Assembly: GCA_016218715.1 (NCBI GenBank)
Contig: JACRDG010000048.1
Coordinates: 434,001 to 498,000, forward strand
Source: Desulfomonile tiedjei
GTDB taxonomy: Bacteria > Desulfobacterota > Desulfomonilia > Desulfomonilales > Desulfomonilaceae
DNA: 64,000 bases
Direction of reading: 5' to 3'
Of the stretch, positions 12,325 through 61,891 are shown in pieces. The number at the start of each line of letters is the position of its first letter. Position 1 is the first letter of the stretch. The notes beneath the pieces were generated by a model, which was given only the letters and a program-made list of their open reading frames with translations, made no database searches and was not told the DNA's origin. The position numbers and the translations under genes are program-made.

Positions 12325-13899
12325 ATGGCGACACGATCCCAGCTGATACGGGTGGCGTTACTAGCCGGGTTTCTGGCCGGCATGGTAGCGGCGACACCAG
12401 GGTACGCGGGTAAACGAGGCGCGCCGTCCTTCGACACCATCCGGAAGGCCTATGAAAAACTGTCCCACGACGAGAGTGCGACCCGGCAGCAGTGGGAGAA
12501 GCTGATCCATGCGTTTCTCGCCGTGCACAAGGATGGGAAGAGGAGCCGAAACGGGAGCCATAGCCTCTTCCTCGCGGGGCGGTGCTATCTCGGTCTGTAC
12601 CGCCAGAGCGGCCGGATAGAGGATCTCAACGAGGCGATCAAACACCTCGATAAGTTCGTTCGCATCCATCGCAAGGGGCCTTATCTCATCCTTGGCCTCC
12701 AGGGACTAAAGGAAGCGGACCTGCTCAAACGAAAGATAGATCGTTCCCGATCTATAATGGTGACTCGTCGAACAGACGACGTCCGCTTGCGGTCAGCGGA
12801 GCAATCCTGCTCGCCTCGTGTTGGTACGCTCCAGGAAGAGGCGGAGGTCCGGCAGGCCCCGGGTTCCCAGGGGGGAAAAGAGAAGGTGACAACGGGAGAC
12901 TCGGGATCTCCCACCGTAAAATCGTACGAACTTCCGGCAAAGCCAGCGGATTCCTACGCGAACGCCCAACCCGAGGCGAGCACTGCGGCGGCTGATGCTG
13001 AAACCGGTCTGGATCAGGAGAGCGCTTCATCGGGGTTTCCGCCTGGTTACAATCTGTGCGGGAACCCGTTTTACCGAAAACCCGACCTTACCCAACCACA
13101 GGAGCCCGCGCGGATCATAAGCGCGTCGCTGTCACCGCCGATCGTGCACGACGCGATCCCGCCCCCTTCCAAGCGAGCGGCAAAACGTCGTCAGTGGGTC
13201 GTTGCCATCGATCCGGGACACGGCGGGAAAGATCCGGGCGCTATATCAAAGGATGGTCTCCTAAAAGAGAAGGAGGTGACCCTCGCAATCGCCAAACAGC
13301 TCAAAGAGAGCCTCAAAAAGCAACTCCCCGGCATTACCGTGGAGTTCACTCGCACGGACGACAGCTTCGTCCCCGTTCAGGAGCGCACCGCGCTGGCGAA
13401 TTCGGCGAACGCGGACCTCTTCGTTTCCATACATTGTAATGCCGCCGAGGACACAAACTCCAAAGGAATCGAAACTTATTATCTGAATAAGGCGTGCTCT
13501 CGCATGTCCATGGCCGTGGCGGCCCGGGAAAACGGTATCCCCGTGAACCAGATGACCGAGATTGACGGGCCGATCCTCGACCTCACCCTCGCATCCAAGA
13601 AGGCTGAATCGGTAAGGTTGGCTCAGCGTGTTCACACATCGCTGATCCACAACCTTGCCGGATTGACCGACCTTCGCCTGGACCGAGGGCTCAAAGCAGC
13701 TCCGTTTTACGTGCTTTTCGGCGCGAAAATGCCTGCCATCCTTGTGGAATGCGGCTTCATCAACGGCAAGGACGAAGAAAAGCTCAAGAACGAGGCGTAC
13801 GTCAAGGCCATCGCGATCGGCATCGCAGACGGAATCTCACAACACCTACAGCGGCCTCCGCTCGGTCCCCGTATGACTAGAAAGACATCAATTCGATGA
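12325..13899 (+). CDS. N-acetylmuramoyl-L-alanine amidase (Amidase_3), secreted
   Basis: The 524-residue protein is a zinc amidase that cuts the bond between N-acetylmuramic acid and the peptide stem of peptidoglycan, as AmiA/B/C do at division. A signal peptide ends near TPGYA (about residue 28). A helical, TPR-like region follows (SLFLAGRCYLGLYRQSG), then a variable Pro/Ser-rich linker to about residue 285. The catalytic domain shows VAIDPGHGGKDPGA (first zinc His), the KEKEVTLAIAKQL helix containing the metal Glu, LFVSIHCNA (second His region) and PAILVECGFINGKDEEK (catalytic Glu). The start could also be the GTG at 12319. Its end overlaps the convergent SNF2 gene by 23 bases. Export to the periplasm is inferred from the signal peptide. 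Confidence 0.9.
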   Translation: MATRSQLIRVALLAGFLAGMVAATPGYAGKRGAPSFDTIRKAYEKLSHDESATRQQWEKLIHAFLAVHKDGKRSRNGSHSLFLAGRCYLGLYRQSGRIEDLNEAIKHLDKFVRIHRKGPYLILGLQGLKEADLLKRKIDRSRSIMVTRRTDDVRLRSAEQSCSPRVGTLQEEAEVRQAPGSQGGKEKVTTGDSGSPTVKSYELPAKPADSYANAQPEASTAAADAETGLDQESASSGFPPGYNLCGNPFYRKPDLTQPQEPARIISASLSPPIVHDAIPPPSKRAAKRRQWVVAIDPGHGGKDPGAISKDGLLKEKEVTLAIAKQLKESLKKQLPGITVEFTRTDDSFVPVQERTALANSANADLFVSIHCNAAEDTNSKGIETYYLNKACSRMSMAVAARENGIPVNQMTEIDGPILDLTLASKKAESVRLAQRVHTSLIHNLAGLTDLRLDRGLKAAPFYVLFGAKMPAILVECGFINGKDEEKLKNEAYVKAIAIGIADGISQHLQRPPLGPRMTRKTSIR

Positions 13900-16800
13900 G
13901 TTCTTCGCGGGAGAAGTGTTTCAGGAGGGCTTTGTCGTCTTGTCTGATGACGGAATCCATGAGACGTTTCTTTTTGGCGATGATCGCGTCGATCTTCTCC
14001 TCCAGGGTGTTCTCGGTGACGAGCTTGAAGACCTGAACACCGCGGCGCTGGCCGATTCGATGGACCCGGTCCGTGGCCTGCTCTTCACGCGCGGAATTCC
14101 ACCACCGGTCGTAATGAATCACCACGGACCCGCCGGTGAGATCTATCCCCAGTCCCGAAGCCCGAAGCGACCCGGTGAAAACCATGCATTTGGGATCCGT
14201 GTTGAACCGCTTCACCGCTTCGGAGCGTTTTTTCGTGTGGCCCTTGATCGTGGCAAATTCGAGCGAGTTGTCCCGGAGAAACGATTCTATCAGTTCCAGC
14301 ATCTTCACGTACTGGCTGAATATTACCACCTTCTGTCCCGATCCGAGGCTCTCTTCGAGCAGCTCGACGAAAAGGTCCCACTTTCCCGACGCGTACTTCC
14401 TGTAGTTCTTGGCTTCCCCTTCCAGTAGGGCCGGGTGGTTGCAGATCTGCTTGAGATAGTTCAGCACCGCGAAGACGTGCATGTACGGGACCTTCTGGTC
14501 CGGGTCTTTCAGAGTCTGGACCAGTCGCTGACCCTGGTTTTCCACCACGTCCCGGTAGAAGCGGATCTGGTCCTCGGTCAGCGCGCAGCGCCGTGTGTCT
14601 TCGATCTTGGAAGGAAGCTCCTTGAGCACCTGTCCCTTGGTGCGCCGTAGCGTGAAGGGATTGATCATGCGGGTGAGCTTGTCTTTGCGGTCCGGGTCCG
14701 CTGCTTCTTCGATGGGGAGCCGGAAGCGGTTCTCGAAGACCGAATCGGACATCAGGTATCCGGGGAGCACGATGTCGAACAAGGCCTTCAGGTCGTTCAG
14801 GCTGTTCTCGATCGGTGTGCCTGTCAGGCCCACTGTGCAGACCGACTGAAGCGCGGCCACCGCGGCATACGTCTTGGTCGACTTGTTTTTTACCGCCTGG
14901 ATCTCATCCAGCACGATGAGTTCGAACCGATAATCCGCCAGCATCTCGATGTCGCGCAGGGCAATGCCGTAAGACGTGATAATGAGGGTGTGCTCTTCAA
15001 AGGCTTCCTCGAAAGAGCGGTCCGTACCATGGTACACATGGGGGTTAAGGTACGGGCAGAATTCCAGCACCTTGTCTTTCCAGTGATTGAGCACCGTCGT
15101 GGGGCAGACCACCAGGAATCGGATCTTTCCGGGCCTGGCGGAAAGTCGATGGGAGAGCCCGGTCATCAGGGCCATGATCTGGTGGGTCTTGCCGAGCCCC
15201 ATGTCGTCGCAGAGGAGCCCGGAGAATCCATTCTCGTACAGGAACCAGAGCCACCCGAAACCGTTCTTCTGGTACCCGCGCAGCTTGCCCTTCATCGCAC
15301 CGATCGCGGGCAGTCTGTTCGGAGGCTTCAGCAGTTCCAGCCCCTGGAACCACTCCTTCAATCTGCCGGAAGAAAAATGTTTCTCGACCCGGTCGTGCAT
15401 GGCGAGGAGTCGGAGGTACTCCGTGCGACTAATATCGATGGAATCCCCTGCGCCAAGGATGCGCTCGGACAGCCCGTCCATCCAGACGAACTCGGCGGAC
15501 GTCGTATCCACCCAGCGGTCGCCGTTAATGACAAAGCGCCTTTTCATCCGGCGTGCTTCGAAGATCTCGCGGAACGACAGCGAAAAATCACCGAAGTCGT
15601 ACCTCACGTCCAGCGTTACGCCCTCTTCACTGAAATCCTTGTGATCGATGGTGACCCGCTGGTACTTTTCCAGGGTCGTGCGGTGCAACAGGGCCTTGTC
15701 CATAAATACCGTGGGATCGGATCGGAGCACCTCACCGTACTCGTCGAGGAATGCCGTGATCTTTCCCGGCGGAATAATCACGTGCTTCTGCGGAACGAAA
15801 TACTCCGCTGGTAAGCCGCCCACGTTTACCGCCATCCTGAAGAAACCCCAGTCAGGGAAAAAGTAGTACGTTCCGAAGAGCTGCTCTTCGAGTGCCGTGC
15901 GATCGAGGTACTCCTCGTTGGAATCCGCGTCCGGGTTCGGATTTTCCACCACGGGAACGATACACAGAGCCGACGATTCGGTCAGATCGATTCGATATCC
16001 GGTTTTGAGCGAGCGTTTGTGTATGAGAAGATCGCCGCCAATGGCGTCCTTTTTCTCCGCGGCCTCGATGATCGTCCCGACATGGCCCCGCGGCGGCACG
16101 AGCCGGAGGACGACGCTCTCTTCTTCGTCCAGCGCCTCTACGGTGAGCTGCTGTTTGTGTTCGAGGAAGCTGAAGTGGAAGGTTCCGCCACCCCGGCCGC
16201 AGATGAGGAATCCCACCTTCGCGATGCGGTGCCAGATGCTCTCCTCAATGTGCTGGCGGATCGATTTGAACCCTCTCCGATTGATGTCGTCTTCGGCCTC
16301 GGAATATTGCCACGGCCTGCGCCGCAGGGAAGGCACGTTGGGGTCCTTGAGCTTCCGACCGTACATCCTTCTGAAGAGTACCGGATCGATATCGCGGCGG
16401 ACGATGTCGAAGAATTCATGGAGAAACTCGTCCACCAGGCGTTCACCTGGCATAAACGCGAGCACTTCCTTGCGATCGCGGTCGAAAAAGGTAATGCGGA
16501 ATCCCTCTCCGCCGTGGTCCACTTGACACTTGAAACCGAGGAGGGAATCACCGAAATTCTTGAATCCGTACGAACTCAGTTCTCGCCAGAAGCTGTCCTG
16601 GAAGTCCTGGCCCAGGGTGCGCAAGCCTCCGGTCTCGGGATCGGGACGAAGCACGTACCGCACGAACGACACAATATGGTGACAGTAGGTACGCGTGAAC
16701 GAGCGGAAACACGCGCAAGACGCGCGGGAAAGTATCTTCGTTTCGGGATCGAGAGTGATATGGACGTTGAACCCTTTTCCGGACGGTTCTGTAACAAGCC

Positions 16801-16972
16801 CGAAGTAAGATTCTCTTCCGAAGTTAATGTGTGAAATTCGCGAGGCTTCTGCAAGCCTCAGCCCCTGTTCGAGAACCTCTGTATTAAATTGCTGTGTTAT
16901 CTCCGACGGGAGTTCACGCCCCCCACTTGCGCCGACCGAGCTTTTCTTTAATTGTATTACCTTTCCAAACAC
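13877..16972 (-). CDS. SNF2-family DNA translocase/helicase with N-terminal SWIM zinc finger
   Basis: The 1031-residue protein is a bacterial SNF2/RapA-like ATPase. An N-terminal SWIM zinc finger is visible as ASCACFRSFTRTYCHHIV (CxC...CxH, about residues 82-100). A long middle region follows, then the SNF2 ATPase: DDMGLGKTHQIMALM (Walker A), LIVLDEIQAVKN (DExx box), GLTGTPIENSLNDL, and the C-terminal helicase half with VIFSQYVKML, SGLGIDLTGGSVVIHYDRWWN and ATDRVHRIGQ. Such proteins remodel protein-DNA or RNA polymerase complexes; the exact role here is unknown. The GTG at 16972 is preceded by AAGGAG at six bases. It is a lone gene, convergent with the amidase. No defence partner genes (such as DISARM methylase) are adjacent. 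Confidence 0.92.
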   Translation of the reverse strand: MFGKVIQLKKSSVGASGGRELPSEITQQFNTEVLEQGLRLAEASRISHINFGRESYFGLVTEPSGKGFNVHITLDPETKILSRASCACFRSFTRTYCHHIVSFVRYVLRPDPETGGLRTLGQDFQDSFWRELSSYGFKNFGDSLLGFKCQVDHGGEGFRITFFDRDRKEVLAFMPGERLVDEFLHEFFDIVRRDIDPVLFRRMYGRKLKDPNVPSLRRRPWQYSEAEDDINRRGFKSIRQHIEESIWHRIAKVGFLICGRGGGTFHFSFLEHKQQLTVEALDEEESVVLRLVPPRGHVGTIIEAAEKKDAIGGDLLIHKRSLKTGYRIDLTESSALCIVPVVENPNPDADSNEEYLDRTALEEQLFGTYYFFPDWGFFRMAVNVGGLPAEYFVPQKHVIIPPGKITAFLDEYGEVLRSDPTVFMDKALLHRTTLEKYQRVTIDHKDFSEEGVTLDVRYDFGDFSLSFREIFEARRMKRRFVINGDRWVDTTSAEFVWMDGLSERILGAGDSIDISRTEYLRLLAMHDRVEKHFSSGRLKEWFQGLELLKPPNRLPAIGAMKGKLRGYQKNGFGWLWFLYENGFSGLLCDDMGLGKTHQIMALMTGLSHRLSARPGKIRFLVVCPTTVLNHWKDKVLEFCPYLNPHVYHGTDRSFEEAFEEHTLIITSYGIALRDIEMLADYRFELIVLDEIQAVKNKSTKTYAAVAALQSVCTVGLTGTPIENSLNDLKALFDIVLPGYLMSDSVFENRFRLPIEEAADPDRKDKLTRMINPFTLRRTKGQVLKELPSKIEDTRRCALTEDQIRFYRDVVENQGQRLVQTLKDPDQKVPYMHVFAVLNYLKQICNHPALLEGEAKNYRKYASGKWDLFVELLEESLGSGQKVVIFSQYVKMLELIESFLRDNSLEFATIKGHTKKRSEAVKRFNTDPKCMVFTGSLRASGLGIDLTGGSVVIHYDRWWNSAREEQATDRVHRIGQRRGVQVFKLVTENTLEEKIDAIIAKKKRLMDSVIRQDDKALLKHFSREELIELMSF

Positions 16973-32391: not shown

Positions 32392-35300
32392 TCACGACTC
32401 GTCTTGGTCAGATCCGCCAAATTCCAAAATCATGTCCAGTAGCTCGCCATGCTCTGGAAACTTCTTCAGCCACAGCGAACGGAATTCGCCTTCTCCCACC
32501 TGGTCCTTGATATTGACAAGGGCTGCCATGATCGCGTCTTTGAGCTGCATTTGCCAGTCTACGGCTATGAGCAGCGCCTGTCCCAGCCGCATCAACGCTT
32601 CATCATACCGGCCTTGCGCAGCATGCAGCAGTCCGTACTGGGCAAGCGTATTGACGGATTGGGGCGGATGGCCGAGCCGTTCGTAGATTTCGAGAGCCTT
32701 TCGGTACCATTGCTCGGCGTCATCGAAGCGGTTTCGCTCCTGTGCCACTCTCCCCAACTGGTGGTACTCACCGGCGGCATCGTGCTCCAGGCCGAGCCGT
32801 TCGTAGATTTCGAGAGCCTTTCGGTACCATTGCTCGGCCTCATCGAAGCGGTTTCGCTCCTGTGCCACTCTCCCCAACTGGTGGTAGTCATTCGCGGTAT
32901 AGCGCTCCAGGCCGAGCCGTTCCTTAATCTCGAGAGCCTTTCGGTACCATTGCTCGGCCTCATCGAAGCGGTTTCTCTCCTCTGCCACTCTCCCCAACTG
33001 GTGGTAAACACGCGCGGCATCGCGCTTCAGGCCGAGCCGTTCGCAGATTTCGAGAGCCTTTCGGTACCATTGCTCGGCCTCATCGAAGCGGTTTCGCTCC
33101 TGTGCCACTATCCCCAACTGGTGGTAATCACCGGCGGCATCGCGCTCCAGGCCGAGCCGTTCTCGAATTTCGAGAGCCTTTCGATACCAGGCCTCAGCCT
33201 CATCGAAGCGGTTGCGCTCCTGGGCCACCATCCCCAACTGGTGGTAGGAGACGGCCATGTTCCCTTCGAGATCGGAGTCATTTAGCCCCTGATAATAGCC
33301 CAATATAATCAAATAGCGCTGTTCCGCGAGATCAAGGCTGTTTTGACGGAGCATCTCGTTGGCCTCGTTAAGGAGCAGGAAACACTGAAGATCCCCTCGA
33401 TCGCGTTCTTCTGCCCGGGGTCGTTCCCGGCCCATGCGACGGAGGAGGCTGCTGCGCAACCCGCCCCATTCCGCCGTGCGATTCGCGCCGTCATAAAATT
33501 CACCAAGCGTCTGAGCGAGCCATTGGACCGAATCCCAGTCATCAATGGCTTCAGCTAGGCGTAGGGCCCGAAGGAGGTTGGCCTCCTGGGCCGCGACCCA
33601 GTCCAGCGCGTCACGTTTCCGTTGCACGACTTCCTCGAGAACGGCCCGGGCAAAGCCTGCAAAGAACCGCATGAATTCCCGATCCAGTGCGGTCAATCCT
33701 TCCTGGCCAACTTGGGACACCAGATGCCGGCGGAGGAGAGCAGGAAGGGTCGGGTGAATCTCGTACAGGGATCCGCCAAGCGGCCGCAGCATCCCGCCGC
33801 GTGCAGCCTCTTCCAGCACCGATCCCCACGATTCACGATCGAGGGCCTCGCCCGCGATTTCCCGATAAGCAGGCAAATCATCACTTCCGCCTGCAAGCAG
33901 CGCCAGCATATCGAGAGACACTACACTCGAGAACAGGCCGACCGCGGGCAGGTGCTTCCTCGTCTTTTCCGACATCTGCGAAAACGCGTACTCGAAGGAC
34001 GCGTCCGCGAGCGATTCACCGAGATTGTCAACGCTTTCACGCAAAGATCGGACTATTTCCCCGGGCGATTTCGTCCTCAGGTGGGGGAGCACCACCTCCA
34101 AGGAGCGCGGATGGCCTGCAAGGAGTTTCACGAGTTCGTAGTAATCGGTGTCCGACCGGAAATCCTCCGGGCTTTTGCCGACCATGCCAAGGACCACCTT
34201 AGCCATGCTGGAGGCATCTTCAACGGTCAGGCCTTCCACCTCCAAAGCGTTGTACCCCACACCGAGCCAGCTCTCATCCCACTTGCGGCTCGTAACGATG
34301 ACCCGGCCCCTGCTGTTACTCAGTTCTTTTAGAAACCGGGAAAACTTCGCCCGATCCTCGTCCGATGAAAAGGGTTCCGCACCCTCCGGGTACCCGGCCA
34401 CAGTCTCGAAGTTGTCCCAGACGAGAAGACAGGGATTTTGACAGAGACGATCCAGTGCCGCGTCAAATTGCTCGTCGGGTGAAAGGCGGGAAAAATCGGT
34501 CGCGTATCCGAAAATGCTTCCCAATACTTGCCCAAAGGTCGCGTTTTCCTTGAAAGTCGTGACGTAAACCCCGCCAGGGCAGCCGCCGGTCTCCGCGAAC
34601 CACCGCCCAAAGCCGTGCGCCAGCTCGGTCTTGCCCGTCCCGCCGATACCGTGGATCAACAACCACGGGCGAGCATTGTCCCGCAATTTCCTCTCGATCC
34701 CCAACATCTCCCGGTCCCGGCCGATAAACCCGAATCGCCCTTCAGGGAGCGCCTCCTTGATGTGTTGTACGTACGTTTGCCTCTCGGCCCGCTCGTCCTC
34801 AGTGCAGGTACCGGCCCCCGTTGGGATCGGAATGAACCCCGACTCCTGCTGGTACAGGGTGGGCACCATCCAGTCCCGCAGAGGAAGCGGCCCGACCACG
34901 GATTCACGCCGCGGCTCGGTCAGCAAGCATTTTCGTCCTTCGGCCACCGCCTCTGACAGCGCGGCATGGTTGACGAGCCGGTCGTAGAAGGATTTCATGA
35001 ACAGAGCGGTGGTATCCGAATGGACAGAGTACGACATACCCAACACGCCCCTCGCGCCCACCGCAATCATCTGGGATGCCACCGAACCGAACGGCTCGAC
35101 CTCACCCTCTTCCGAGGACTGGCACGCGCTGAAGACGAACAGCGGCACCCGGCAGTTGGTGAGGACCTCCGCAAGGTCCCGGCTGCTCACCAGGTTGCCG
35201 TCACCCTCCACCGTCTCGAAGAGAAGGTATCCGGTATCCGGTCTCATTGCGCTCGCCTTGCCCGCTGAGGACTTCCGCATGACCCCGTGCCCATCGAACT

Positions 35301-35979
35301 GAACGAGGTGATAGTACCCGGGTTGGTCGGTAAGCCGCTGGCGCAGCGCATCAAAGGTCGGAGGGCGTAGTACGTCGAGCTGGACCCCTGGCATGAAGGG
35401 CCGCAGGACTTCCAGCATCGGTCTGGCATCCGAGCGCACTGAAATGGCGTCGTCTATCTTGCGCGCGATGACGAGCAGAATGCGAAAAGGGCCTTTGATT
35501 TCATAGGGAGGCGGAACGGCAAGGGCATGAGCGGATCGCTGGCGATACAGTCCAGCCAAAGAAAAACCCAGATACCCGCGCCCTGGCGTGGAATCACGCA
35601 ATAATTCCCAGGGGATATTGAGGAAAACCGGGTCGTCCGAGGCGATGCACAACTCGCATTGGTCGAGCCCGTCTTGAACCGCTTGATGGAAAAAACCCCG
35701 AGGGTCCGGGTCGGAATTGCCCTTGATGAAGACCTGCTCGAACAGGCGCGCCCCCCACTTCTCCATCTTCAACTCGATCGCGGCAGCCCGATCCTGATAC
35801 GCGCCGTACGGATACCTGAGATACTCCTCCAAGTACCAACGGAGATCCTTGCGGTCCTGCCGCGACAGCGGATCGGAAAAGGGAACGGGCTCGGGGTACT
35901 GTCTCAGGGCATTCCCCCGCTGCCACGAGACTTGAACGGTACCGTCCGTCAGGTCCTCAATTCGCAGGATGTTTCTCAT
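32392..35979 (-). CDS. CHAT protease - STAND/NB-ARC-like NTPase - TPR protein
   Basis: The 1195-residue protein has three parts. The N-terminal CHAT (caspase-like) peptidase domain carries the expected His (FDGHGV, about residue 230) and Cys (FVFSACQSSEE, about 285). The middle STAND NTPase has a P-loop (HGIGGTGKTELAHGF, about 446), Walker B (CLLVWDNFET, about 522), sensor-like VIVTSRKW and a winged-helix-like segment. The C-terminal third has TPRs; five consecutive 40-residue units (QERNRFDEAEQWYRKALEI...) are nearly identical even at DNA level. ATG 35979 follows GGGAGGGG; a longer frame to 36057 runs into repeat DNA. Such proteins act as signal-triggered proteases in bacterial immunity and cell death; the trigger and target here are unknown and no partner gene is obvious. 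Confidence 0.88.
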   Translation of the reverse strand: MRNILRIEDLTDGTVQVSWQRGNALRQYPEPVPFSDPLSRQDRKDLRWYLEEYLRYPYGAYQDRAAAIELKMEKWGARLFEQVFIKGNSDPDPRGFFHQAVQDGLDQCELCIASDDPVFLNIPWELLRDSTPGRGYLGFSLAGLYRQRSAHALAVPPPYEIKGPFRILLVIARKIDDAISVRSDARPMLEVLRPFMPGVQLDVLRPPTFDALRQRLTDQPGYYHLVQFDGHGVMRKSSAGKASAMRPDTGYLLFETVEGDGNLVSSRDLAEVLTNCRVPLFVFSACQSSEEGEVEPFGSVASQMIAVGARGVLGMSYSVHSDTTALFMKSFYDRLVNHAALSEAVAEGRKCLLTEPRRESVVGPLPLRDWMVPTLYQQESGFIPIPTGAGTCTEDERAERQTYVQHIKEALPEGRFGFIGRDREMLGIERKLRDNARPWLLIHGIGGTGKTELAHGFGRWFAETGGCPGGVYVTTFKENATFGQVLGSIFGYATDFSRLSPDEQFDAALDRLCQNPCLLVWDNFETVAGYPEGAEPFSSDEDRAKFSRFLKELSNSRGRVIVTSRKWDESWLGVGYNALEVEGLTVEDASSMAKVVLGMVGKSPEDFRSDTDYYELVKLLAGHPRSLEVVLPHLRTKSPGEIVRSLRESVDNLGESLADASFEYAFSQMSEKTRKHLPAVGLFSSVVSLDMLALLAGGSDDLPAYREIAGEALDRESWGSVLEEAARGGMLRPLGGSLYEIHPTLPALLRRHLVSQVGQEGLTALDREFMRFFAGFARAVLEEVVQRKRDALDWVAAQEANLLRALRLAEAIDDWDSVQWLAQTLGEFYDGANRTAEWGGLRSSLLRRMGRERPRAEERDRGDLQCFLLLNEANEMLRQNSLDLAEQRYLIILGYYQGLNDSDLEGNMAVSYHQLGMVAQERNRFDEAEAWYRKALEIRERLGLERDAAGDYHQLGIVAQERNRFDEAEQWYRKALEICERLGLKRDAARVYHQLGRVAEERNRFDEAEQWYRKALEIKERLGLERYTANDYHQLGRVAQERNRFDEAEQWYRKALEIYERLGLEHDAAGEYHQLGRVAQERNRFDDAEQWYRKALEIYERLGHPPQSVNTLAQYGLLHAAQGRYDEALMRLGQALLIAVDWQMQLKDAIMAALVNIKDQVGEGEFRSLWLKKFPEHGELLDMILEFGGSDQDES
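32690..33260. repeat. Tandem 120-bp DNA repeats encoding TPRs
   Basis: Five consecutive 120-bp units start near 32701, 32821, 32941, 33061 and 33181. Most differ at only a few positions, many of them third codon positions or within one short variable patch. The outermost unit (33181) is the most diverged. Each encodes one 40-residue TPR-like unit of the CHAT protein. Confidence 0.9.
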
Positions 35980-36125: not shown

Positions 36126-36174
36126 ACTAATTACTACGTTTCGCAAATACGGTCACGAATTCAGAACAACTGCG

Positions 36175-36390
36175 CAGCCCCGAAGGGGCTGACCAACGGT
36201 AGCCACGGGTTTCAACCCGTGGAATGAGGGGGCCAATGGTTGTTCGATAACGACCCTGAAGGGGTCGACCAGGCACGAGCCCTGGATTGCGGGGTTGGTG
36301 GACCCCTTCAGGGTCCAGACCGTCTTCGTCGGGGCATTCGTTCCACGGGTTGAAACCCGTGGCTATTCAAGGTGCGTCCCTCTGGGACGC
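36175..36390. repeat. Nested inverted-repeat island (six palindromes)
   Basis: Palindromes lie at 36175-36191 (CAGCCCCGAAGGGGCTG), 36203-36222 (CCACGGGTT/AACCCGTGG), 36251-36267 (CGACCCTGAAGGGGTCG), 36300-36316, 36343-36362 and 36374-36390 (GCGTCCCTCTGGGACGC). The first half is repeated as the reverse complement in the second: 36203-36222 pairs with 36343-36362, and 36251-36267 with 36300-36316. The whole can fold into one large structure. Confidence 0.8.
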
Positions 36391-36466
36391 AACATGCAGC
36401 ACTGGTGGGTGTCGCAAAATACGCGACCGTATTTACGCCACAGAGCACTAAGTGGTCACCGGATGG

Positions 36467-57178: not shown

Positions 57179-60100
57179 TCACCCTTTGGGCCGGGGATGG
57201 AACAGGACGGAGAAGGTGGTGCCGCCCGATTTCTTGCATTCTTCGGTTCCGCTGACGTATCGGCACAGGGAGATCTTACCGGGGCATTCATACAGATGGT
57301 CGCGGATCTGTTGGCATTGCCGACTCTCGAAGGATATGTCGAAGTACCCGTCCTCTGAGAGGATTTTCAACCGCATCAGCTCGAGGCCCTTCCCGCCCGC
57401 GTCGAAATCGAACGGGTTCTTCGTCGCGTACCGTGACGTGGCCTGGGTGTGATAGAAGGCCTTGAAGAGGAACTCACGGTCCGCGGCCGGAATGCCCACC
57501 CCCCGGTCTTCCACTTGCAGCAGAACCCCCGAAGGCACGCGGGTCAGGTACACGATGACCTCACCTTCATCCGGGGTGTTCTCGACGGCGTTCTTCAGCA
57601 GCGTCGCGAGGATCTCCCCGAAGATTTCCGGATCGATGACATCCGTTTCCACCGGTTCCAGCCTCGCGACGAGGTCTACGTCGCGGTGAGACGCCCTGCG
57701 TCTACTTTTTGAGATGATTTCGTTCACCGTCGGGATGAGCGGGAACGAGCGAGGCTGGTACGCGCGTGGGGTGACGATCTCTTGAACGATGTGCTGGATG
57801 TGCGTCAGGCGTCCCAAATTCCGCTGTATGCGTTCGAGCTTTTCGTCTCTCTTATCGTCCGGCAGGTCGGTGCTCGTGAGGTTCTTCAGTGAGGATTTGA
57901 TCACCGCGAGCGGCGTTTTCAGCTCGTGGGAGAGGTGATGAACCGCCCGTCGCCGTGCGCGCTCCATGGACTTGAACGCGGTGACGTCACGAGCCACATT
58001 GACCGATCCGATTACGCGACTGTTCTCATCGGTGAGCGGCGAGACTCGCAGGTCGAATACCCCTCCCAGATTCTCATCGGAAACCTCGGCCGAGTATTCG
58101 TTGCCCACCGCGAGCGAGCGCGTGTCAGGACACAACGCGAGCGGGGTTCTTTCTTCACCCGATCCTTTCGCGCAAAGCGCGCCGATAAACGATTCGGGAG
58201 GCACTCCCAACCGATCTGCCAGTGCCCTGTTTACTCGTACGATCCTGCGATCCTGGTCCAGAATGAGAATCAGGTCGGATACGGCATTGAACGTGCGTTC
58301 CCACTCGTTCTTTGCCCGGACGATCTCCTCCTGGGCTTTCATCTCTGCGGTCACGTCCAGGAACGTAGCGATAACCCGTCCATCGGCCAGGACTACGGAG
58401 CGAAAACTGGCAATCTTGGGGGAGCCGTCCTTACATACGGCCGTGAAGACGCGGGGACTCGCCTCGGTGCCGATTCCATATTCGATCTGGATGTCTGCGG
58501 TTTCCGTGCGCCAGATCGACGCGGCCTTGGCAGCGCTCTCACGGGTCATATACGCCGCGCGAAACCAGCTCTCCGCGTCCGGTAAATCCTCGAGCGTGTA
58601 GCCGAATATTTCGGTAAACTTGGGGTTGACGTATTCCGTGCGTTCATCCGCGGCCAACACCACGAGCCCGATCGGCGCCACGTCAGCCAGGGTCCTGAAG
58701 CGTTCTTCGCTCTCTTTCAGGGCAGCTTCCGCTTTCTTGCGGTCGGTGATGTCCCTGAGTATGGCGAGGGTCCCCACAGGCTTCCCCTCGTGATCGCGGT
58801 TGCGCGATGCACTGATGCTGATATCGAGAATGCGGCCGTCCTTGGTAAGTCGTTTCGTCTCGAACGCGCTGCAGGGGGTGCCGTCGCCGATGATGCGACG
58901 GATGATCGCCATCGTGGCCTCTCGTTCGGTCTCCGGGAGAAATGGAATTCGTTTGCCTTCCACTTCTTCCAGGGTCCAGCCGAAGGTCCGGGTAAACGAC
59001 GGACTGACGTACTGCGTTTTCCCCTCCATGTCGTAAATTACGATGGCATCCGCGGAGGAATTGAGGAGCGCACGATACAGCTCCTCACGAAGCTTGGATT
59101 CCTCGTACAGGTTCTTGAAACTCTCTTCTCGCTCGACCAGCCGTTCCTGAACGCGTTTCCTCGTAATTTCGACCGCGGCAAGATTGCCCAGCAGCGACAG
59201 GGTATCGAGATCCGGCCTGGAAAAGGATGTCCGGGTCCGGTTGAATGCGTAGAGCACGCCGAGGTTTGTTTGTCCTACAACGACGGGGACAGCGATCCCT
59301 GAAAAGAGCCCCTCTCCGCGGGCAACCTCGTGAAACTCCGGCCCCACTTCTTTGAAGTAATCCTCGACCATCAGCCACTGCCCGCTCTCCGCGACCTTTC
59401 CGCCCAGTCCCACGCCGACAGGGATACGGAGATTCCTGAACGCCTCGGTCACGATGCCGGAGACGGTGTGCATGTACAAATCGCCCGTGGTCTCGTCCCG
59501 GAGGGCAAGAAACGCTTTGTCCGCGGCGAGCAGTTCCCTGCTCTTGTTCACAAGCAGTGATAGATTCTCGTCCAGGCTGCGTTCGGCCCTCATCGCGACG
59601 GCCAGCTCGTAGAGGACCTGAAATTTCTGTAATTCCTCTGCGAGATTTGCCTCGGCCTGCTTGCGCGCGGTGATGTCCCGGAGATGGACGACGCTTCCGG
59701 TACGGTTTCCCGCCTCGTCAAAGAAGATCGCACCGCTGACGCTTACGTCGATGATTCTGCCGTCCCTGGTGTATCTCCTGGACTCCTCATCGGAAAAGGC
59801 TTCTCCATGGAGAACCATTTCGATCATCTTGCGCGTCTCAGGCCAGTTCTCGGGCGGAACGAAGTCGATCCGCTTCCCTTCCAGTTCCGGGAACGTCCAT
59901 CCAAAGACTCGCGTGAAGGCGGGATTGATGTACTGAGGCAACCCTTCAACATCGTAGACCACAATAGGTTCCGGCGATGCGTCCAGAAGGGTCCGGTAGT
60001 GCTTGCGCAGTCTTTCGGACTCCGCGTACAGTGCCCGATAGTTCTCTTCGCTCCTGCGCAGGGCTTCTTCGGTGATCTTGTAGTCGCTGATGTCCCGAAG

Positions 60101-61891
60101 GATGGCGAGCATCCCCACAGGCCGCCCATCGTGATCGTGATATCGTGAGCCACTGATGCTGATGTAAAGCAGGCGGCCGTCCTTGGTGTATCGCCTCGTC
60201 TCAAAGCCGCTGACGGGTGTTCCCTCCGCAATAAGGGAACTGATGAGGGAGAGGCTGCTTTCGACTTCAGTGTCGGGCATGAAGGGGATCTTGCGTCCCT
60301 GCAGTTCCTCTAATTCCCAGCCAAAGATGCGGGTGAACGAAGGGTTGGTGTACTCCGCCCTTCCTTCCATATCGTAGATGACGATCGCATCGGCGGAGGA
60401 GTTGAGCACCGACCGGTACAGCTCTTCTCGCAGGCGGGACTCCTCATAGAGCACCCGATAGTTTTCTTCGTTCCTCCGACGCGCCTCTTCGGCCCGCGTA
60501 GAGTCGGTTCTGTCGCGAAGAATCACGAAGAAGCCCGCCAGATGGCCCTGGTGATCGAAGAACGGGGCGCCGCTCACGTTGACGTCGATCACTCGCCCGT
60601 CTTTGGTATAGCGTCGCGTTGCTTGTCCTGAAAACCGTTCCCCCCGCCTGACCGTTTCGATCATTTCGCTGGTTTCCGGCCAATTTTCCGGAGGCACATA
60701 GGGAATGGTGCTTCCCGCGAGTTGTTCGAATGTCCAACCGAACACCTTTGTGTGCGCTTCATTGATGTATGTGGGCTTCCCTTCCGCGTCGTACACCACG
60801 ATCGGATCTGGAGAGGCATTGAGGAGTGAGCGGTAACGATCCTGGGCCTTCTTCGCCTTTTCGTAAAGGTTCCGGTATCGCTCCTGGCTCTCAAGAAGCG
60901 ACTCCTTGGCTCGGTTCCGTGTGATTTCCAGAGCGGCCAGGTTCCCCATTAGTGAGAGGGTGTCCAGATCCGAAGCGGAAAAACGTGTCTTCGTCCGATT
61001 GTATACATAAAGGACCCCAAGGTTGGTCTGGGCTATCTTGATGGGGACTGCAATTCCGGAGATGAGGCCTTCCGCACGAACCGGCCCGTGAAGGAGCGGC
61101 TCCACCTCCTGGAAATAGTCTTCGAGGGATGATCGTTCTCCGGTCTTGGCAACCGTGCCGCCATGTGCTTTCCCGAAAGGTATCCGGATTCGCCGAAAAT
61201 CCGCGGTCTGGATTCCTGACAACGTGTGCATGAACAGGTCGCCGTTTTTTTCATCACGCAGCGCGATGAACGCGGTGTCGGCCCGGAGCAATTCGCGGCT
61301 TTTTTCCACTACAAGGGAGAGGTTCTCATCCAGACTGCGTTCGGCGGTCATGGCAACTGCGAGGTCAAAGAGCGCTTGAAACTTGTTCAGTTCTGTTTGC
61401 AGCTCATGCTGGGCTCGTATCCGTTGGGTGACGTCCAGGAGCGTGCCAAGGACTGCCGGCCGGCCGTTGTAGTCGGCTCGCGATCCGTAGACTTCCGTAT
61501 AGATAGTCTCACCGTCCCGGCGAACGCCTCGAAATTGGAAGCTGATTGCCTCGACCTGGCCGGAGAAACGCTTCTTGAGATTTTCTTCCACCGCGGGCCA
61601 ATCTTCGGGGTATACGAGATCTCGCGGACCTTTCTTGTTGATGAGTTCTTCGACATCGTACCCGAAGATCCAGGCCAGTCTGGGATTGACGTATCGGAAC
61701 AGGTCCTCCTGAACCAGATAGACCCCGACCACCGATTTTTCCGTGAGTTTTCTGAACTTCGTTTCGGATTGCTGCAGGGCTTCTTCAAGCCACTTGTGTT
61801 CGGTCGCGCAGGCTTCCAGCTCGGCGACCCGGTGCCGCAGACGCTCCAGTTCCAGCACGAGCTCGTCTTTGGTTTTCTCCCGATCTGTCAT
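57179..61891 (-). CDS. Multi-PAS/GAF hybrid-sensor histidine kinase
   Basis: This 1570-residue soluble kinase has no membrane helix. Order of domains: coiled coil (1-40), PAS1 (about 42-160), GAF1 (170-330), PAS2 to PAS4 (365-750), GAF2 (765-920), PAS5 to PAS7 (945-1310), HisKA with the phosphoacceptor in VHHLSHELKTPLAVIKSSL, then HATPase with LLKNAVENTPDEG (N box), VEDRGVGIP (G1) and FDAGGKGLELM (G2). Before its end it has a Cys set C-x9-C-x6-C-x8-C. PAS3 and PAS5, and the two GAF-flanking parts, are similar, which suggests block duplication. There is no receiver domain; the divergent response-regulator gene at 62290 is the likely partner. The signal is unknown. Confidence 0.92.
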   Translation of the reverse strand: MTDREKTKDELVLELERLRHRVAELEACATEHKWLEEALQQSETKFRKLTEKSVVGVYLVQEDLFRYVNPRLAWIFGYDVEELINKKGPRDLVYPEDWPAVEENLKKRFSGQVEAISFQFRGVRRDGETIYTEVYGSRADYNGRPAVLGTLLDVTQRIRAQHELQTELNKFQALFDLAVAMTAERSLDENLSLVVEKSRELLRADTAFIALRDEKNGDLFMHTLSGIQTADFRRIRIPFGKAHGGTVAKTGERSSLEDYFQEVEPLLHGPVRAEGLISGIAVPIKIAQTNLGVLYVYNRTKTRFSASDLDTLSLMGNLAALEITRNRAKESLLESQERYRNLYEKAKKAQDRYRSLLNASPDPIVVYDAEGKPTYINEAHTKVFGWTFEQLAGSTIPYVPPENWPETSEMIETVRRGERFSGQATRRYTKDGRVIDVNVSGAPFFDHQGHLAGFFVILRDRTDSTRAEEARRRNEENYRVLYEESRLREELYRSVLNSSADAIVIYDMEGRAEYTNPSFTRIFGWELEELQGRKIPFMPDTEVESSLSLISSLIAEGTPVSGFETRRYTKDGRLLYISISGSRYHDHDGRPVGMLAILRDISDYKITEEALRRSEENYRALYAESERLRKHYRTLLDASPEPIVVYDVEGLPQYINPAFTRVFGWTFPELEGKRIDFVPPENWPETRKMIEMVLHGEAFSDEESRRYTRDGRIIDVSVSGAIFFDEAGNRTGSVVHLRDITARKQAEANLAEELQKFQVLYELAVAMRAERSLDENLSLLVNKSRELLAADKAFLALRDETTGDLYMHTVSGIVTEAFRNLRIPVGVGLGGKVAESGQWLMVEDYFKEVGPEFHEVARGEGLFSGIAVPVVVGQTNLGVLYAFNRTRTSFSRPDLDTLSLLGNLAAVEITRKRVQERLVEREESFKNLYEESKLREELYRALLNSSADAIVIYDMEGKTQYVSPSFTRTFGWTLEEVEGKRIPFLPETEREATMAIIRRIIGDGTPCSAFETKRLTKDGRILDISISASRNRDHEGKPVGTLAILRDITDRKKAEAALKESEERFRTLADVAPIGLVVLAADERTEYVNPKFTEIFGYTLEDLPDAESWFRAAYMTRESAAKAASIWRTETADIQIEYGIGTEASPRVFTAVCKDGSPKIASFRSVVLADGRVIATFLDVTAEMKAQEEIVRAKNEWERTFNAVSDLILILDQDRRIVRVNRALADRLGVPPESFIGALCAKGSGEERTPLALCPDTRSLAVGNEYSAEVSDENLGGVFDLRVSPLTDENSRVIGSVNVARDVTAFKSMERARRRAVHHLSHELKTPLAVIKSSLKNLTSTDLPDDKRDEKLERIQRNLGRLTHIQHIVQEIVTPRAYQPRSFPLIPTVNEIISKSRRRASHRDVDLVARLEPVETDVIDPEIFGEILATLLKNAVENTPDEGEVIVYLTRVPSGVLLQVEDRGVGIPAADREFLFKAFYHTQATSRYATKNPFDFDAGGKGLELMRLKILSEDGYFDISFESRQCQQIRDHLYECPGKISLCRYVSGTEECKKSGGTTFSVLFHPRPKG

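What the first reader, a model, noticed from the sequence alone, without database searches (positions are those of the whole stretch)
32392..35979. CHAT protease - STAND NTPase - TPR protein: candidate stand-alone immune or cell-death effector
One polypeptide holds the three parts of a self-contained sensor: TPR ligand-binding part, P-loop STAND switch and caspase-like CHAT protease with His and Cys both present. CHAT and STAND proteins are established players in bacterial and fungal immunity. Here the gene stands alone, without gasdermin, Cas7-11 or other known partners, and is set between repeat-rich DNA, so its target is open.
Basis: partly seen in the sequence, partly recalled or inferred. 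Interest (0 to 1): 0.8.

Follow-up and report, generated by a model that had tools for sequence, protein, structure and literature searches.

The report
Bacterial NLR-like caspase-type sensor protease
This gene encodes a single bacterial protein built like an animal or plant immune receptor (a sensor arm, an ATP-driven switch and a caspase-like protease), and most of its relatives in other bacteria carry a small membrane protein gene right beside them that is a good candidate for what the protease acts on.

Summary
Window 32392-35979 (minus strand, 1195 aa) encodes CHAT protease, AP-ATPase-type STAND switch and TPR array. The catalytic pair H231/C286 aligns in all intact relatives; the modelled CHAT domain matches separase and the Craspase protease Csx29. 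Relatives are rare and scattered: 3 of 395 genomes of the phylum, one of them a remote match; none of 17 same-family genomes. They sit on plasmids, beside integrases, and in one case beside MADS/Ssp-type defence genes, so the gene behaves like a mobile conflict gene.

(1) The TPR units are near-identical 120-bp DNA repeats whose replacements concentrate at few positions; the same positions are hypervariable in unrelated relatives, as in fungal NLR receptors. (2) 'Stand-alone' is true here but not of the family: 11 of 18 loci carry a 117-155 aa membrane protein gene at the 3' side. Three sequence-unrelated partner families occupy that slot; one is weakly similar to EACC1, the membrane partner of known bacterial caspase systems. 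The window copy has no such gene adjacent.

Best reading: NLR-like sensor protease of a membrane-targeting conflict system, orphaned from its usual partner. New variant of a known kind; no activity shown.

The parts
32392..35979 (-). CHAT-STAND-TPR gene, 1195 aa (P0001)
   Evidence: open frame with ribosome-binding site; Pfam
34810..35979 (-). N-terminal caspase-fold region, residues 1-390 (separase/Csx29-like)
   Evidence: AlphaFold model of 1-420; VIA-align Z 21.1 to separase 5FBY (rmsd 4.0, 311 aligned), Z 19.7 to Craspase TPR-CHAT 8D9F (rmsd 3.8, 302 aligned)
34903..35664 (-). CHAT domain proper (PF12770), residues 106-359
   Evidence: 68.5 bits, cut-off 24
35287..35289 (-). catalytic histidine H231 (FDGHG)
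   Evidence: aligned in all relatives
35122..35124 (-). catalytic cysteine C286 (SACQS)
   Evidence: aligned in all relatives
33580..34728 (-). STAND (AP-ATPase-like) NTPase and helical part, residues 418-800
   Evidence: conserved motifs; weak APAF-1 and PH0952 sequence matches; 6MFV fold match
34627..34650 (-). Walker A, GIGGTGKT, residues 444-451
   Evidence: G449 and K450 invariant in the 14-row alignment
34414..34428 (-). Walker B, LLVWD, residues 518-522
   Evidence: alignment
32557..33405 (-). TPR superhelix, residues 859-1141
   Evidence: Pfam; pLDDT mostly above 85; Z 32.7 to LGN TPR 4WND, rmsd 2.6 over 315
32659..33258 (-). five near-identical 40-aa TPR units, residues 908-1107, variable mainly at unit positions 1, 3, 4, 10, 32
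   Evidence: repeat search; codon analysis; comparison with relatives
36126..36453 (.). MITE-like inverted-repeat element between purD and the gene (neighbour, not part of the system)
   Evidence: terminal inverted repeats; dispersed copies in the genome

Best explanation
An NLR-like sensor protease of a bacterial conflict (immune or cell-death) system. Proposed steps: the TPR superhelix binds a foreign or altered protein or peptide through the few hypervariable positions of its units (inferred); binding releases the AP-ATPase-type STAND module, which exchanges nucleotide and oligomerises (inferred from the class; motifs shown); this activates the N-terminal separase/Csx29-type CHAT protease (catalytic pair shown, fold by prediction, activity not shown), which cuts a substrate. 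In most relatives the best substrate or partner candidate is the small membrane protein encoded at the 3' side (co-occurrence shown, cleavage inferred), so the output would be membrane damage or growth arrest. The window copy belongs to a branch without that neighbour and must act on a substrate encoded elsewhere or on host proteins.
For: Domains, catalytic and Walker motifs conserved. Fold matches: CHAT to separase and Csx29; STAND-TPR to 6MFV. Sporadic distribution across phyla: 3 of 395 genomes of the phylum including a remote match, none of 17 same-family relatives; full-length relatives in Poribacteria, Planctomycetota, Actinomycetota, Desulfovibrio, Acidobacteriota and on Nostocales plasmids. 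Neighbours: integrases, MADS/Ssp-type defence genes, a caspase-nSTAND1-trypsin protein. The TPR units show high DNA identity with dN about equal to or above dS in several pairs, and the same variable positions in independent relatives, permutation p=5e-5 with P0001 left out. 3' membrane-protein gene in 11 of 18 loci; in the 7.3-Gb plasmid set each partner type is found only beside such a gene.
Against: No partner gene beside the window copy and no relative of one partner family in its genome (no positive control). No PADLOC system matches the whole protein. Defence-gene neighbours in few loci; others lie among housekeeping genes. Positions 3 and 10 also vary in a TPR outgroup, so the diversification is not fully specific. 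CHAT proteins also serve non-immune roles (HetF, DdvA). No biochemical evidence.
Confidence: 0.5

Rival explanations
1. A regulatory or developmental signalling protein rather than an immune one: CHAT used as a dedicated processing protease or protein-interaction module, in the manner of HetF (heterocyst development and division in Anabaena) or the CHAT-containing anti-sigma factor DdvA.
For: HetF is a CHAT-domain protein needed for heterocyst differentiation and reported as a divisome component (PMC8406250, abstract); DdvA (8ROT/8RW5) is a structural and the only sequence-level CHAT match in the PDB. The genome holds several other CHAT proteins of a different, TPR-first order, so CHAT is used broadly here.
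Against: Patchy distribution, plasmid carriage and absence from all 17 same-family relatives do not fit a conserved regulator. The order CHAT-STAND-TPR and the repeat homogenisation resemble NLRs.
Confidence: 0.2
2. Allorecognition or kin discrimination: the hypervariable TPR array tells self from non-self neighbours or incoming elements, as HET-type NLRs do in fungi, rather than sensing phage.
For: Near-identical TPR units with diversity at few positions parallel fungal NLR TPR repeats under positive selection (PMC4986451). CHAT-bearing NLRs controlling gasdermins are described in fungi (PMC12881547).
Against: No population data for this species; a single genome cannot show allelic diversity.
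Confidence: 0.15
3. An orphaned or decaying copy: without the membrane partner the protein may have no output and be kept only briefly.
For: Partner absent locally and one partner family not found in the genome. Several relatives look broken: CHAT-STAND and TPR in separate frames in Acidisarcina L044 and Nostoc L040, TPR region eroded in L064, frame shift in L029.
Against: The frame is intact over 1195 codons with all catalytic residues; codon composition matches the host (GC3 0.70). The closest intact-frame relative (L029) and the closest fragment (L033) also lack the small partner, so the branch may work without it.
Confidence: 0.1

Closest known systems
NLR/STAND receptors with N-terminal protease, including fungal CHAT-NLRs that control gasdermins
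   Same: Order effector - STAND - superstructure repeat; CHAT as effector; near-identical repeats with a few variable positions (PMC4986451, PMC12881547)
   Different: Bacterial; no gasdermin next to it; the partner in relatives is a small membrane protein of other families
EACC1-caspase two-gene membrane system (System 4 of Kaur et al. 2020, PMC7159879)
   Same: Caspase-superfamily protease with swappable C-terminal modules, including STAND and repeats, paired with a small single-TM protein; one partner family here is EACC1-like (hhalign probability 54%, 0 of 300 shuffles as good)
   Different: Partner on the 3' side, not 5'; protease is CHAT; Pfam scans of the partners list no EACC1 match; window copy has no partner; two other partner families show no similarity to EACC1
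Craspase TPR-CHAT protease Csx29
   Same: CHAT fold (Z 19.7, rmsd 3.8 over 302 residues) and TPRs
   Different: TPR-first order, no STAND, activated by gRAMP/Cas7-11 RNA binding; no such genes next to the window gene
SAVED-CHAT (PCaspase)
   Same: CHAT fold (Z 17.4, rmsd 2.2 over 191 residues); PADLOC partial match to its CHAT part
   Different: Sensor is a SAVED cyclic-nucleotide domain, absent here
STAND-TPR protein PH0952 (6MFV)
   Same: Top fold match over the STAND-TPR part
   Different: No CHAT domain

Membership tests
CHAT protease (PF12770) | profile match above cut-off | tested here: met
   68.5 bits against 24
CHAT protease (PF12770) | His/Cys catalytic pair in place | tested here: met
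   H231 and C286 align in all relatives
CHAT protease (PF12770) | proteolytic activity | not testable with these tools
   needs assay
STAND/NLR-like receptor | tripartite effector-NTPase-repeat order with Walker A and B | tested here: met
STAND/NLR-like receptor | ligand-induced oligomerisation | not testable with these tools
   needs biochemistry
Avs and other PADLOC-listed STAND defence systems | match to a defence-system model over the whole protein | tested here: not met
   only partial TPR, SAVED_CHAT, BovA and mad8 matches
EACC1-caspase two-gene system | EACC1 gene immediately 5' of the protease gene | tested here: not met
   purD is the upstream gene in the window; in relatives the small gene is on the 3' side
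EACC1-caspase two-gene system | partner belongs to EACC1 | tested here: inconclusive
   no Pfam EACC1 hit; one partner family weakly similar by profile comparison, above all shuffles; the window copy has no partner
Craspase (type III-E CRISPR) | gRAMP/Cas7-11 and Csx30 genes adjacent | tested here: not met
   neighbours are purD, an SNase-fold gene and a radical SAM gene; not searched genome-wide
Bacterial gasdermin operon | gasdermin gene adjacent to the protease | tested here: not met
   213 nt downstream hold no sizeable frame; upstream is purD; genome-wide not tested
SAVED-CHAT | SAVED domain fused to CHAT | tested here: not met
   only the CHAT half matches

The most novel reading that the evidence does not exclude
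A family of bacterial one-protein inflammasomes: CHAT-STAND-TPR receptors with homogenised, position-specific variable TPR arrays, whose 3' slot is filled by interchangeable small membrane effectors from at least three unrelated families, cut and released when the receptor is triggered.
Probability: 0.35. Interest if true: 0.75.

Novelty: new variant of a known kind. Interest (0 to 1): 0.5.

Why it matters
It would be a compact bacterial counterpart of NLR-protease-executioner death pathways, with sensor, switch and protease in one chain. The linked small membrane genes give the open question 'what does the CHAT protease cut' directly testable two-gene pairs, and the near-identical TPR units suggest how a bacterial receptor can keep changing what it recognises.

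Tried and rejected
Viral contigs: no relative of the protein or of partner family A3. The other CHAT genes of the genome are not close paralogues: five are TPR-first/CHAT-last, one is CHAT alone, one is a weak hit not examined further. The synteny test for an empty site failed: purD and the radical SAM gene are not neighbours in same-family genomes. Composition shows no foreign signal. Long antisense frames over the gene (for example 32449-33285) are shadows of the repeats. The three partner families are not detectably related to each other. The paper searches found no description of these 3' partners; subscription papers are not covered. In one search the script misread the window record, so its 'excluding None' line equals a run without P0001 data; only the 'excluding P0001' figure is used, and P0001 itself is taken.

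Full report
WHAT IS THERE. Window 32392-35979 on the minus strand encodes one protein of 1195 residues with an ATG start and a ribosome-binding site. Pfam finds a CHAT domain (68.5 bits) and TPRs. The middle third has Walker A (GIGGTGKT), Walker B (LLVWD) and the motifs shared with relatives. By sequence it touches APAF-1 and the STAND-TPR protein PH0952 only weakly, but the full-length model's best solved match is PH0952 (6MFV, E 8e-18, TM normalised by target 0.75). Mean pLDDT of that model is 74 with most TPR residues above 85 and pTM 0.46, so the relative placement of domains should not be trusted. A separate model of residues 1-420 (pTM 0.80) matches separase (5FBY, Z 21.1, rmsd 4.0, 311 residues) and the Craspase protease (8D9F, Z 19.7, rmsd 3.8, 302 residues), and over the catalytic part the SAVED-CHAT filament (8TL0, Z 17.4, rmsd 2.2, 191 residues). 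H231 and C286 align in all relatives.

SURROUNDINGS. The gene is monocistronic by layout: purD, then an SNase-fold gene, lie upstream, separated by about 490 nt that hold a MITE-like inverted-repeat element with many dispersed copies in the genome. A radical SAM/B12-binding gene with its own promoter-like site lies 213 nt downstream. No gasdermin, Cas or other partner is adjacent. In same-family genomes purD and the nearest radical SAM homologues are not neighbours, so no empty site can be shown. Composition matches the host.

RELATIVES. Searching the first 864 residues in 395 genomes of the phylum found three genomes, including this one and one remote match; none of 17 same-family genomes has it (one search lists only TPR matches there). 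Full-length relatives of about 30-40% identity occur in Poribacteria, Phycisphaerales, Actinobacteria, Desulfovibrio and on plasmids of Nostocales, Acidisarcina and Nonomuraea. The tree puts the window protein with Poribacteria (100/99), sister to the Nostocales plasmid group (96/97). This is the distribution of a horizontally moving gene. Neighbours include integrases, a MADS/Ssp-like methyltransferase/mad7/SspF cluster (L031), and a caspase-nSTAND1-trypsin protein (L041); other copies sit among ordinary genes.

TPR ARRAY. Five 40-residue units (908-1107) are repeated at DNA level, up to 93% identical. Among the last four units several pairs have dN equal to or above dS (for example 0.12 against 0.02 and 0.13 against 0.06), and replacements cluster at unit positions 1, 3, 4, 10, 32 and the 37-40 linker while the YHQLG and WYRKALEI cores are invariant. 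In six relatives with their own arrays, positions 3, 4, 10 and 32 are again among the most variable (permutation p=5e-5 with the window protein left out). Caveats: the dN/dS sample is tiny, and positions 3 and 10 (TPR positions 2 and 9, ligand-facing by general TPR knowledge, from memory) also vary in an outgroup. Fungal NLRs show the same pattern of highly conserved TPR, WD and ANK repeats with a few positively selected positions (PMC4986451).

A PARTNER IN THE FAMILY. Looking just 3' of the relatives gave the main new result. In L045, L032 and L044 a 149-150 aa protein with one hydrophobic segment starts 0-22 nt after the receptor genes (33-37% identity to each other). A profile of it, run over 291 genomes, hit six; apart from L045's own genome, in three (L064, L065, L066) it again follows a CHAT-STAND-TPR gene or its TPR end, one lies at a contig edge, and one broken copy has no such neighbour in the 6 kb taken. 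Two Actinobacteria loci of one genome (L030, L054) and Nonomuraea (L042) carry a second family; Nostoc SO-36 (L040) and Calothrix (L043, convergent) a third with two hydrophobic segments. In 72,556 plasmids each partner type is found only next to such a receptor. In total 11 of 18 loci have a partner; the window copy, L029, L031, L033, L034 and the L038/L041 plasmids do not (L029 has an RDD-family membrane protein further on, of unclear relevance). No Pfam, NCBIfam or PADLOC family covers the partners tested.

LINK TO A KNOWN SYSTEM. Kaur et al. (PMC7159879) described a two-gene system of a single-TM protein, EACC1, followed by a caspase-superfamily protein with variable C-terminal modules, STAND NTPases and repeats among them. 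EACC1 sequences were taken from public records, several of them directly upstream of a caspase-family gene, and compared with the first partner family: hhalign probability 54%, E 1.3e-4, and 0 of 300 column shuffles scored as high. The reverse comparison is weaker (17%), so this is suggestive only. The other two partner families show nothing.

MECHANISM. Shown: anatomy, catalytic and nucleotide-binding motifs, folds by prediction, repeat pattern, gene linkage in relatives. Inferred: TPR recognition of a ligand, nucleotide-driven oligomerisation, CHAT activation, cleavage or control of the membrane partner, and death or arrest as output. For the window copy the substrate must be elsewhere or a host protein. 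Immune function is the most likely role but not demonstrated; developmental, regulatory, allorecognition and orphan-decay readings stay open.

VERDICT. The protein is of a known kind (CHAT proteases, NLR-like STAND receptors). The order CHAT-STAND-TPR with 3' membrane partners is a new variant as far as the searches here reach. Interest 0.5: solid and testable, but the architecture itself would not surprise a specialist, and the window copy lacks the most informative part.

Noticed in passing
window 36126-36453: MITE-like inverted-repeat element with inner CCACGGGTT..AACCCGTGG palindromes; 36 partial matches to a 73-bp piece of one arm across the genome, three nearly full-length.
   Followed up: partly
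G000 contigs C62, C48, C15, C9, C101, C67, C70 (L047-L053): Seven further CHAT hits in the same genome; five are TPR-first/CHAT-last proteins, one CHAT without recognised repeats, one weak hit below the cut-off.
   Followed up: partly
L029:7368-11156: The Poribacteria relative carries an extra N-terminal class III nucleotide cyclase domain before CHAT, and its TPR end appears split by a frame shift.
   Followed up: partly
L031:501-7590: Phycisphaerales relative next to a tyrosine-integrase-like gene and MADS/Ssp-like genes (mad2-type methyltransferase, mad7, SspF).
   Followed up: partly
L041:13125-16085: Plasmid neighbour fusing caspase, nSTAND1 and trypsin domains in one protein.
   Followed up: no
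L043:6902-11077: Calothrix plasmid relative has ten TPR units, some 99% identical at DNA level, a sign of very recent repeat expansion.
   Followed up: partly
L032:12003-19191: Genes that look by eye like a Mu-type prophage (transposase, ATPase, coat-like proteins) lie just downstream of the Desulfovibrio receptor-partner pair.
   Followed up: no
window 57179-61891: 1570-aa sensor histidine kinase with many PAS and GAF domains.
   Followed up: no
window 13877-16972: SNF2-family helicase of 1031 aa.
   Followed up: no
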